Shown here: positions 10,364 to 33,777 of the stretch, in pieces
Layout of the letters: the number at the start of each line of letters is the position of its first letter
Numbering within the stretch: the stretch's first letter is position 1
Origin: Sporomusa acidovorans
GTDB lineage: Bacteria > Bacillota > Negativicutes > Sporomusales > Sporomusaceae
Length of the DNA: 64,000 bases
Assembly: GCF_900101845.1 (NCBI RefSeq)
Contig: NZ_FNAM01000001.1
Span: 124,001-188,000 of the forward strand
Reading direction: 5' to 3'
Notes under the pieces: generated by a model
Told to the model about the DNA's origin: nothing
The model's input: only the letters and a program-made list of their open reading frames with translations
Databases searched by the model: none
Program-made: the position numbers and the translations under genes

Positions 10364-10485
10364 TACTCATCAAGAGTTGGTGGAGGGACTGGCCCGATGA
10401 AACCGCGGCAACCATTTAATACGGCAGGTATTAAAACGGTGCTAATTCCGGCGGCAAAGCCGCAAGATGGGAGTGAAACGTCACA
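10364..10485 (+). promoter_or_regulatory. SAM-I (S-box) riboswitch aptamer
   Basis: The conserved S-box core is present in order: CTCATCAAGAG, GGTGGAGGGACTGGCCC, GATGAAACC, CGGCAACC, and then GGTGCTAATTCC, with the closing strand near GATGGGAGTGA. These blocks form the SAM-binding four-way junction in the known class. Its place before metK, the SAM synthetase gene, fits feedback control: bound SAM should favour the terminator at 10487-10513. Confidence 0.95.
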
Positions 10486-27851: not shown

Positions 27852-27913
27852 TTTACCGCTTAGTGGTAACATAGGTAATAGATAATATCTACGAGAATAA
27901 AAAGTATACAGTT

Positions 27914-28043
27914 AGCCTTTGGGGCAAGGTGAAAAAGAGTCAATCTCTTTTAATTCCTGACCGGCGGTATAGCCCGCGAGCCGTTATCACGGTTGATCTG
28001 GTTTGATTCCAGAGCCGACAGTATAGTCTGGATGGTAAAAGGC
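27914..28043 (+). promoter_or_regulatory. FMN riboswitch (RFN element)
   Basis: The RFN blocks appear in the right order: CTTTGGGGCAAGGTGAAA, TTCCTGACCGGCGGTATAGC, CCGCGAGC, CTGGTTTGATTCCAGAGCCG, ACAGTATAGTCTGGATGG and AAAGG. The ends GCCTTT and AAAGGC close helix P1. It precedes ribD-ribE-ribBA-ribH, the usual target; FMN binding should favour the terminator at 28088-28130. Confidence 0.96.
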
Positions 28044-28087
28044 GAAAGTTCTGCCGTGATGGCATTTCCTAACCATATTGCCGATTG

Positions 28088-32246: not shown

Positions 32247-33119
32247 ATGCGTGACCATCTTATCAGGGCAACAGCGCCCGGGCTTCGTGCCTTTGCTGCC
32301 GTTACTACCAATCTGGTAGAAGAGGCACGCCAACGACATGATTGTTTTCCAGTAGCTACCGCTGCACTGGGGCGCACCATGACCGGCGCACTATTATTAG
32401 CCGCTAATTTAAAAACAGCAGAAAGCATAACTGTGAGGATATCTGGCGACGGACCGTTAAAAGAAGTAGTTGCCGATGCTTATCCGGATGGGTCAGTACG
32501 CGGTTATGTAAGAAATCCTTTTGTCGATTTGCCACTGAATCAGGGAAAATGGGCGGTTGGGCAGGCAATCGGCAAGGGACATATTTACGTTACCCGCTTT
32601 GTTGGTCTCAAACAGCCTTTTACCGGCAGCGCGGCACTCGTTTCAGGCGAAATAGCAGAAGATATAACTCAGTACCTTACCGTTTCAGAACAAACTCCGT
32701 CAAGTGTTGCTTTAGGGGTTCTGATTGCACCTGATGCAACAGTTGCCGCAGCAGGAGGATTTTTTATTCAGGCGTTGCCGGGTGCGGAAGATTCGGCAAT
32801 CACTCAGCTTGAAAATAATCTGCAGCAGTTGCCGCCGGTTTCTCAAATGGTTAACATGGGAAAAGGCGCTAATGGGATACTGGAAATGTTGTTTTCCGGA
32901 CTTCCCATTACGGCGTATGACCCTTTGGAGCTTAGATTCAATTGCCAATGTTCCCGTGAAAGAGTGGAGAATATGCTCATCAGTCTTGGAGCCAAAGAAA
33001 TTAAAGAAATGATCAACGACGGCCAAGCCGAAGTTTGTTGTCATTTTTGCGGCGAAAAGTATCATTTTAATGCCCATGAACTTGCTGTTATCTTGAAACA
33101 AATTGAAGCTAAGAAATAA
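32247..33119 (+). CDS. hslO: Redox-regulated chaperone Hsp33
   Basis: The 290-residue protein holds unfolded proteins under oxidative stress. The redox switch near the C-terminus has the two zinc-binding pairs: FNCQCSRERV (CxC) and EVCCHFCGEKY (CxxC, with one extra Cys). The N-terminal domain matches Hsp33 (DHLIRATAPGLRAFA). The ATG at 32247 follows GGAGG. The repeat-rich gap follows. Confidence 0.96.
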   Translation: MRDHLIRATAPGLRAFAAVTTNLVEEARQRHDCFPVATAALGRTMTGALLLAANLKTAESITVRISGDGPLKEVVADAYPDGSVRGYVRNPFVDLPLNQGKWAVGQAIGKGHIYVTRFVGLKQPFTGSAALVSGEIAEDITQYLTVSEQTPSSVALGVLIAPDATVAAAGGFFIQALPGAEDSAITQLENNLQQLPPVSQMVNMGKGANGILEMLFSGLPITAYDPLELRFNCQCSRERVENMLISLGAKEIKEMINDGQAEVCCHFCGEKYHFNAHELAVILKQIEAKK

Positions 33120-33150
33120 CAATTTGAATGAAAATGCCTTCTATATAGTA

Positions 33151-33250
33151 TCCAATAAAGATTTACAGGCAGGGTGTTAGTAAAAGCGTAGGTTAAGCGC
33201 CAGCGGCGAAGCGTTACTAACACCCTGCTTTGATGAAAATCTTTATTGGA
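33151..33250. repeat. Long hairpin A with conserved AGCG-rich loop
   Basis: An inverted repeat covers the 100 bases. The inner stem is perfect over 15 bp (33169-33183 with 33214-33228), and the outer arms TCCAATAAAGATTT / AAATCTTTATTGGA pair again after a short asymmetric spacer. The 30-base loop at 33184-33213 contains GGTTAAGCGC and four AGCG/GCG units. This loop differs at only three positions from the loop of hairpin C, although the arms are unrelated. It lies just downstream of hslO and has no coding potential. Confidence 0.8.
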
Positions 33251-33275
33251 TTTCATATATGTTAAAAGTTAAAAG

Positions 33276-33312
33276 AAAAAAGCCAGCGTTAAAAACACCG
33301 CTGGCTTTTCGG
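33276..33312. terminator. Bidirectional intrinsic terminator
   Basis: The stem AAAAGCCAGCG/CGCTGGCTTTT has A-runs before and T-runs after, so it could act on both strands. On the plus strand it would terminate hslO readthrough. Confidence 0.75.
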
Positions 33313-33445
33313 CATAAGAAAAACCGCTGGCGCGGTCCTTTAGCTTTGCGCACGTCAAATAATCCCGTAATACAAGGGGAGGGGTTTTACTTTTGGCATT
33401 GCCCCAAAAGTAAAAAAGGTCTAGGCCCGAAACCTCCAAAAGCTG

Positions 33446-33529
33446 AAAAGCCGGGCGGTATTCCTAAAATCCGTAAACTCGCTACGCTCAAACAGTACGG
33501 ATTTTTTTACGGAATACCGCCCGGCTTTT
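33446..33529. repeat. Long hairpin B with GAGCGTAGCGAG loop
   Basis: Arms starting AAAAGCCGGGCGGTATTCC (33446 onward) pair with GGAATACCGCCCGGCTTTT (ending 33529), and the inner ATCCGTA/TACGGAT pairs as well; a short A/T bulge separates them. The 20-base loop at 33476-33495 reads TTTGAGCGTAGCGAGTT on the minus strand. In one frame that encodes LFERSEF, a string I recall from many spurious Firmicutes ORFs. The arms share no sequence with hairpins A and C. Confidence 0.75.
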
Positions 33530-33633
33530 CTCCTGCGGAACGCTTTTTCCGGCAAAGGCCGGAGGGGTACGGGAGTTACCAGGGTTGCCGGGGTCACCCT
33601 CTCCTTGCTCAAGCCGGGCGTACACCGTACTGA
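33530..33633. other. Non-coding repeat-rich island between hslO and rpmB (rest)
   Basis: The gap from 33120 to 33821 holds no gene I can support. This portion between hairpins B and C is GC-rich with clustered GGCC, CCGG and GGGG motifs and weak hairpins (GGCAAAGGCC). Its composition differs from the AT-rich genes on both sides. Frames through it exist on both strands but have no ribosome site or family likeness. Confidence 0.5.
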
Positions 33634-33707
33634 GGCGCGGGCGGCCGTTATGCATAAGCGGAGGTTAAGCGCTAGCGGCGGAGCGTTGTATGACGGCCGC
33701 CCGCGCC
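33634..33707. repeat. Long hairpin C with conserved AGCG-rich loop
   Basis: A 21-bp stem (33634-33654 with 33687-33707), pairing throughout as RNA if two G-U pairs are allowed, has very GC-rich outer arms (GGCGCGGGCGGCCGT). The loop at 33655-33686 is almost the same as the loop of hairpin A, including GGTTAAGCGC. The arms differ entirely from hairpin A. It lies about 75 bases before the rpmB terminator. Confidence 0.8.
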
Positions 33708-33777
33708 GGGCCTTGTACCCGACACCTTTGTTTTATAAGATCTCAGCACCGCGCAAAACTTATAATTTCTGATACAT

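What the first reader, a model, noticed from the sequence alone, without database searches (positions are those of the whole stretch)
33151..33707. Two long hairpins with unrelated arms but nearly identical 30-base loops
Hairpin A (33151-33250) and hairpin C (33634-33707) have arms with no sequence in common. One is AT-rich and the other very GC-rich. Their loops (33184-33213 and 33655-33686) match at 27 of 30 aligned positions, including GGTTAAGCGC and several AGCG/GCG units. In ordinary repeats arms and loops are conserved together, or arms more than loops. Here compensating arm sequences vary while the loop is fixed, as if the loop were the functional or mobile part and the arms were acquired at the site. 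I know of no named element with these properties.
Basis: partly seen in the sequence, partly recalled or inferred. Interest (0 to 1): 0.8.

Follow-up and report, generated by a model that had tools for sequence, protein, structure and literature searches.

The report
Mobile hairpins sharing one conserved cap
Two hairpins in a Sporomusa-type genome carry the same 32-base tip on unrelated stems because both belong to families of scattered, partly mobile hairpins in this bacterial class, in which the folded tip is conserved and the stem only has to pair with itself.

Summary
In detail: the two loops match at 29 of 32 bases on unrelated arms. The loop is a folded cap, found by covariance model in 35 of 380 genomes of the class (19 of 102 genera), with different arms in different lineages. 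On 27 diverse copies 17 of 20 pairs show compensated changes, and RNAalifold finds the same fold unaided.

Hairpin A (33142-33259) is ordinary in mechanism: a MITE of an IS630-type insertion sequence. Its ends match those of a transposase-bearing element in a relative (22 of 26 bases), and a relative of A has a clean empty site (CTAG, TA duplicated). Arms and loop entered together, so arms are not picked up at the site, and many copies share them.

Hairpin C sits in an unrelated repeat of about 430 bp, so otherwise different families share the cap. In four genomes the cap strand opposes the replication fork in 58 of 71 assigned copies; in a recent burst in a fifth, 53 of 96. I read the cap as a single-stranded hairpin (RNA or DNA) recognised by an unknown factor. 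It lacks the GTAG tag of REPs and matches no Rfam family; limited literature searches showed no description.

The parts
33142..33259 (+). Hairpin A: MITE-like element of an IS630-type IS, flanking TA duplication included (element proper 33144-33257)
   Evidence: 118-bp unit with about 35 A-type places in the genome (my count); ends match TIRs of an IS630-family IS in G002; related D-type copy has a clean CTAG/TA empty site; absent after hslO in 7 of 7 sister genomes whose flank could be read
33142..33167 (+). outer left arm = terminal inverted repeat of element A
33234..33259 (+). outer right arm = terminal inverted repeat of element A
33169..33183 (+). inner left arm of A (variable between families, self-complementary)
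33214..33228 (+). inner right arm of A (first two bases are T31-T32 of the core)
33184..33215 (+). conserved cap (32-nt core) of hairpin A
33313..33770 (+). longer dispersed repeat that carries hairpin C; 95% identical over 33313-33739 to a copy on contig C54, 84% over 33411-33736 in Anaerospora (G304)
33445..33530 (+). third hairpin (arms 33445-33469 / 33506-33530) inside the longer repeat; no cap
33634..33654 (+). left arm of hairpin C
33656..33687 (+). conserved cap (32-nt core) of hairpin C
33687..33707 (+). right arm of hairpin C (starts at the last base of the core)
32247..33119 (+). upstream gene, Hsp33 (hslO)
   Evidence: PF01430
33822..34013 (-). downstream convergent gene, ribosomal protein L28 (rpmB)
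   Evidence: PF00830

Best explanation
Both hairpins end in the same structured cap: a 32-nt core folding as arm helix, G-C/C-G, a symmetric GNA/GNA internal loop, one pair, an asymmetric GTTAA/GN loop, two pairs and a GNYA-type tip. The cap is kept nearly letter by letter and the arms only as a helix, because the cap is read as a single-stranded hairpin (RNA or ssDNA) by a trans-acting factor that does not read the arms. Hairpin A spreads as an IS630-type MITE: its ends are terminal inverted repeats, and arms plus cap are cut and pasted as one unit into TA. Hairpin C carries the same cap inside an unrelated longer repeat. Shown: the cap structure by covariation, its presence in 19 of 102 genera, end homology to an IS630-family IS, the clean empty site of a D-type relative. 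Inferred: that a factor binds the cap, that it acts as RNA or ssDNA, and that copies with the cap strand along the fork are lost by selection.
For: Core: 48 places in this genome, reversed control 0. 22 of 380 class genomes by pattern, 35 of 380 and 19 of 102 genera by covariance model. Covariation in 148 distinct sequences: pair 8-24 GC 67 / AT 75, pair 14-21 GC 89 / AT 49, pair 15-20 CG 136 / TA 7. On 27 diverse copies 95.6% of cells paired against 65.5% shuffled, covariation 0.829 against 0.224 (0 of 500 shuffles), 17 of 20 pairs with both sides changed against 14.4 shuffled (15 of 500 reach 17); 21 of 184 copies with fewer than 11 of 15 arm pairs were left out before. RNAalifold predicts the identical structure unaided. 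On 87 distinct model hits 96.5% paired, covariation 0.827 against 0.201, 19 of 20 pairs with both sides changed (fitted to the model). IS630 link: three copies of an IS in G002, HTH ORF 182 aa and DDE_3 ORF 176 aa, whose two ends each match the A end at 22 of 26 bases. Empty site of L117. 119 copies in G011. Orientation: cap strand opposes the fork in 58 of 71 assigned copies in G002, G006, G009, G083; 53 of 96 in G011.
Against: No binding factor, transcript or function was found. The excess of G.U over A.C in the arms, which would favour RNA, is clear in two counts whose filters accepted G.U as a pair (49 against 20 events; 29 against 9) but not in the wider set (33 against 22, p 0.18). Cap strand is more often antisense to flanking genes (46 against 27), which speaks against a cis-acting mRNA element. 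The strand bias was first noticed in the G083 list; without G083 it is 47 of 59. The unbiased burst is one element type in one genome, so age and type are confounded. The single DDE_3 match in the window's own genome is broken (one stop) and no matching TIRs were found near it; of 20 DDE_3 loci in five genomes only 3 have such ends on both sides. One genome of the same genus (G010) has no copy. Arm complementarity alone could also be kept by template switching between arms.
Confidence: 0.7

Rival explanations
1. The loop is the mobile unit and inserts at the tip of pre-existing hairpins, so arms are local sequence.
For: Copies within one genome with nearly the same core and very different, well-paired arms in G316, G313 and G079.
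Against: The empty site of L117 has no arms; A, B, C and D arms recur in many copies; CATGAGA recurs at the inner arm in 7 of 19 G316 copies; two related G313 copies differ by paired, compensated changes.
Confidence: 0.08
2. These are REP/BIME elements spread by a RAYT (TnpA-REP) HUH transposase acting on single strands.
For: Short palindromes in non-coding DNA, strand bias to replication, alternating orientation of three copies in G313, Y1_Tnp genes present in all 5 genomes tested. REP stems are also reported to vary with compensation (PMC3733652 passages).
Against: No conserved GTAG: the second base is T in only 29 of 148 cores, and the motif lies inside the hairpin, not at its foot. 0 of 20 RAYT-sized (198-311 aa) Y1_Tnp loci have a core within about 1.5 kb (7 further such matches got no locus and were not looked at). 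The D-type copy L117 does lie in a remnant of a RAYT-type gene, but as an insertion into it with TA duplication. G010, without the cap, has 11 Y1_Tnp matches.
Confidence: 0.1
3. Arms stay complementary through intrastrand template switching (quasi-palindrome correction) and the cap is homogenised by gene conversion; no selection on structure.
For: Many arms are perfectly paired (95 of 184 copies 15 of 15) while their sequence differs widely between copies.
Against: Cap pairs covary across an asymmetric internal loop, which is hard to make by copying one side onto the other; cap letters outside pairs are nearly invariant over many genera.
Confidence: 0.1
4. The hairpins are ordinary transcription terminators or mRNA-stabilising 3' structures.
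For: 126 of 151 copies lie outside ORFs of 70 or more codons, and convergent sites outnumber divergent ones, 23 to 14 (crude ORF calling).
Against: No U-tract after the right arm of A or C; cap strand more often antisense to flanking genes and antisense to 5S rRNA in the rRNA-linked copies; terminators do not need a conserved 32-nt cap.
Confidence: 0.05

Closest known systems
RUP of Streptococcus pneumoniae (107-bp IS630-Spn1 MITE) and IS630/Tc1-mariner MITEs in general
   Same: About 115 bp, no gene, terminal repeats like those of an IS630-family IS, TA target, tens to about a hundred copies (RUP data: passages of PMC2229807; here)
   Different: Nearly the whole element is one palindrome, and its middle is a structured cap shared with non-MITE hairpins; nothing of this kind appears in the RUP passages read
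Correia/NEMIS elements of Neisseria
   Same: TA-flanked MITEs whose transcripts form long stem-loops (PMC2229807 passages)
   Different: No cap shared with unrelated repeats described in the passages read; no sequence comparison was made here
REP/BIME with RAYT (GTAG and CGTC superfamilies)
   Same: Dispersed palindromes with a constant motif and stems that vary with compensation (PMC3733652 passages)
   Different: Constant part is a 32-nt structured apex, not a 4-nt foot tag; GTAG not conserved; no RAYT gene flanked by caps in 20 loci
Structured non-coding RNA motifs as in Rfam
   Same: Covarying helix with a sequence-conserved apex
   Different: No Rfam 15 family matches the hairpins at gathering score, only hits far below gathering score up to E 5 in the region; repeats scattered without one associated gene

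Membership tests
IS630-type MITE (RUP-like), for hairpin A | Terminal inverted repeats shared with an IS630-family IS | tested here: met
   G002 IS, three copies, ends TATATAAAATCTAAAAAAGATTTACA / TATATACAATCTATTAAAGATTTACA, each 22 of 26 identical to TATATAGTATCCAATAAAGATTTACA of A; DDE_3 and HTH domains
IS630-type MITE (RUP-like), for hairpin A | TA target duplication with an empty site | tested here: met
   Met for the D-type copy L117 against the paralogous stretch L260. For the window's own A copy the ends fit and A is absent after hslO in 7 of 7 sister genomes read, but those flanks are too different for a clean empty site
IS630-type MITE (RUP-like), for hairpin A | No coding capacity, dispersed copies | tested here: met
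   About 115 bp; about 35 A-type places in the genome; 119 copies of a related type in G011
IS630-type MITE (RUP-like), for hairpin A | Active cognate transposase in the same genome | tested here: inconclusive
   G000 has one PF13358 match with an internal stop and no TIR found around it; the matching IS is in G002
REP/BIME-RAYT | Conserved GTAG (or variant) tag at the foot of the palindrome | tested here: not met
   position 6 is G 104, T 29, A 8, C 7 of 148; the motif lies inside the hairpin
REP/BIME-RAYT | RAYT gene flanked by the repeats | tested here: not met
   0 of 20 Y1_Tnp loci of 198-311 aa in five genomes, 7 more not looked at; L117 is an insertion into a RAYT-gene remnant; genomes such as G083 or G313 not tested
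Rfam RNA families | Match above gathering score | tested here: not met
   window and 20 related loci: none at the hairpins
Intrinsic terminator | U-tract directly after the stem | tested here: not met
   absent after the right arms of A and C by reading; one G079 copy does have a T-run

The most novel reading that the evidence does not exclude
A new class of structured nucleic-acid motif: a portable cap, read by one unknown factor, that sits on hairpins of any arm sequence and has been taken up by independent repeat families (IS630 MITEs and non-MITE repeats) across at least 19 genera of the class, with purifying selection on its orientation relative to replication.
Probability: 0.3. Interest if true: 0.8.

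Novelty: new variant of a known kind. Interest (0 to 1): 0.6.

Why it matters
Dispersed bacterial hairpins are usually defined by a conserved stem or a short foot tag. Here the apex is the conserved, structured part, it is shared by element families with different ends, and a recent burst is unbiased while copies in other genomes are strand-biased. That points to a recognisable ligand and a testable binding partner, and it makes the question why palindromic repeats persist approachable in culturable acetogens (Sporomusa).

Tried and rejected
Rejected: chance or a plain two-copy repeat (reversed pattern 0 in the listed rows); known Rfam RNA; REP/RAYT; phage or plasmid origin (no match to hairpin A in either collection; no exact core-pattern match in viral contigs).

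Led nowhere or weak: the G.U against A.C test is suggestive only. Linkage to rRNA operons is strong in Anaerospora (G304: 9 of 10 listed copies, judged by 5S or by its 3' flank at contig ends) and seen in G091, G088 and G008, but only 3 of 30 fetched 5S loci carry a core, so it is lineage-specific. Sister genomes lack A after hslO (7 of 7 read), but their flanks differ too much for a clean empty site. Flanking genes in G002 cannot separate replication from transcription as the cause of the strand bias; the G083 part of that script returned nothing. G086 (7 copies) could not be assigned an origin, and G082 (6 copies; by hand 4 of 6 oppose the fork) was left out.

Mended on re-reading: loci from the genome search are not turned to the match strand, so one search showed the wrong side of hslO for L280-L284; one search repeats that correctly. 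The comment that 5S is on + in all loci is wrong for the same reason; its core finds stand.

Literature: Sporomusa with MITE and repeat gave 0 papers. Negativicutes with repeat and RNA terms gave 739, of which I saw the 12 listed and passages of one, PMC6429828. Sporomusa/Pelosinus repeats gave 1 listing. Other searches: listings only, apart from passages of PMC2229807 and PMC3733652 and the outline with abstract of PMC8266576. Most subscription papers are not held, so absence from print is not shown.

Full report
Observation. The loops at 33184-33215 and 33656-33687 match at 29 of 32 bases. The arms of hairpins A and C share no repeat found there. Both fold strongly. A is built of an outer imperfect stem and an inner perfect one. 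Between them lies a third hairpin without the loop. The neighbours are Hsp33 and ribosomal protein L28.

Copies in this genome. The 32-base core, with up to 3 mismatches to a slightly degenerate consensus, has 48 places; the reversed pattern has none. The arms fall into families: A, the window's hairpin A; B, with ends like A but other arms; and C, the GC-rich hairpin. Element A gives 53 matches. By my count 35 are distinct A-type places; the rest are 3 cores of C copies, 2 B copies, 12 of the same palindromes read on the other strand and 1 second half. The C query gives 12 matches, 6 of them C-type.

Other genomes. The core is in 10 of 12 family genomes and 22 of 380 class genomes by pattern. 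A covariance model finds 35 of 380 genomes and 19 of 102 genera, with stricter filters that lose weak matches and at most 14 candidates scored per genome. Named matches are Sporomusa species, Anaerospora hongkongensis and Bacillota MAGs (exact pattern only). G011 carries 119 copies; those I read are nearly identical. G313 has 33, G316 18 and G083 12. G010, of the window's genus, has none.

Structure of the loop. In 148 distinct sequences three pairs inside the core covary: 8-24 (GC 67, AT 75, other 6), 14-21 (GC 89, AT 49, other 10) and 15-20 (CG 136, TA 7, other 5). Position 11 follows pair 8-24 (mostly T with G-C, C with A-T), possibly a base triple. Of 184 distinct copies, 163 have at least 11 of 15 arm pairs and 95 have all 15; 27 diverse members of those 163 form alignment A1. 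On A1, 95.6% of cells pair (shuffled 65.5%), the covariation score is 0.829 (shuffled 0.224, slid versions at most 0.216), and 17 of 20 pairs have changes on both sides, a count that 15 of 500 shuffles also reach. The selection favours paired arms, but did not look at the cap pairs. RNAalifold, given no structure, predicts the same 20 pairs. On 91 model hits (87 distinct), 19 of 20 pairs have double changes; that alignment was fitted to the model. The nearly invariant letters are the GNA/GNA internal loop and its neighbours, while the tip varies between genera, most in G150.

How A moves. G002 carries an IS630-family insertion sequence in three copies with an HTH ORF of 182 aa and a DDE_3 ORF of 176 aa. 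Each of its ends is identical to the A end at 22 of 26 bases. Of 20 DDE_3 loci in five genomes only these three have such ends on both sides. A D-type hairpin in G002 (L117) aligns with a paralogous stretch of the same genome (L260) that lacks it...TTTTGAAC TAGATAACTC... against the same with the element between duplicated TAs. L260 is a RAYT-type gene and L117 a remnant of one, so the element inserted into coding DNA there. Both arms and cap are absent from the empty site, so they entered as one unit into CTAG. That IS630 itself prefers TA in CTAG is recalled, not from a call. The window's A copy is absent after hslO in 7 of 7 sister genomes where the flank could be read. The closest described element is RUP (PMC2229807, passages).

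What C is. Hairpin C lies in a repeat of 33313-33739 or more (95% identical to a copy on contig C54), parts of which occur alone in other genomes of the genus and, at 84%, in Anaerospora. I saw no IS630-type ends on it. Other genera have further cap hairpins with their own arms. In G316, copies share a nearly identical core on widely different arms. CATGAGA still recurs in 7 of 19, and related copies in G313 differ by paired changes, so I read this as arms drifting in pairs rather than arms picked up at the site.

Strand and context. Of 151 copies, 126 lie outside ORFs of 70 or more codons; flanking genes are -/- 46, +/+ 27, +/- 23, -/+ 14 relative to the cap strand, 16 have an undetermined side (crude ORF calling). 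Using GC skew and gene strand in 20-kb samples, the cap strand opposes the fork in 27 of 38 (G002), 7 of 7 (G006), 13 of 14 (G009) and 11 of 12 (G083), together 58 of 71, p 6e-8; 9 listed places near origin or terminus were set aside. In G011 it is 53 of 96, with 4 set aside. The bias was first noticed in the G083 list; without it the count is 47 of 59. The lists are partial: 17 listed of 23 or more places in G009, 100 of 119 in G011, 11 of about 12 in G006, 40 of 40 in G002 (53 with a looser pattern). Copies within a genome are related, so the p value is optimistic. I infer that insertion is unbiased and that copies along the fork are lost; element type and age are confounded, and replication and transcription cannot be separated here.

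RNA or DNA. Arm mismatches are more often G.U than A.C in two counts (A1), both filtered with G.U counted as a pair, but not clearly in the wider set (A2). The antisense placement argues against a cis-acting mRNA element. I hold RNA and ssDNA about equally likely.

Known families. REP/RAYT fails on the tag and on RAYT linkage (0 of 20 loci of RAYT size, 7 more not looked at). Rfam has no match. No match was found in plasmids or phages (hairpin A) or viral contigs (core pattern).

Verdict. Hairpin A is a new member of a known kind. The shared structured cap on free arms, across unrelated repeat families, appears undescribed in what I could search, and is the part worth following.

Noticed in passing
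L190/L218 (Anaerospora), L319-L325, L173, L172, L316, L212, L219: Cap hairpins sit just downstream of 5S rRNA, antisense to it: 9 of 10 listed copies in Anaerospora (some judged by the 5S 3' flank at contig ends), and also in G091, G088 and G008. Only 3 of 30 fetched 5S loci overall carry one.
   Followed up: partly
window 33313-33770: Dispersed repeat of about 430-460 bp carrying two hairpins, conserved at 84% into another genus; 33445-33530 is a long hairpin with loop ACTCGCTACGCTCA.
   Followed up: partly
L062, L141-L167 (G011): 119 copies of an A-like hairpin, nearly identical in those read: a recent transposition burst.
   Followed up: partly
L108 (G000:C54:55238-55445): A B-type cap hairpin appears nested between the two arms of an A-type element.
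   Followed up: no
L335 (G313:C14:36321-36909): Three cap hairpins in alternating orientation within 600 bp, BIME-like.
   Followed up: no
L372, L381, L428 (G150): Divergent caps with the same outer GNA/GNA part but a different apex (CTTCAGCC...), on well-paired arms.
   Followed up: no
L117 and L260 (G002): A D-type hairpin interrupts a remnant of a RAYT-type (Y1_Tnp) gene whose paralogue L260 has an open frame of 285 aa.
   Followed up: partly
window 27911-28047 and 10364-10473: FMN and SAM riboswitches; the FMN one lies just upstream of a run of ORFs that look like riboflavin-synthesis genes by eye.
   Followed up: no
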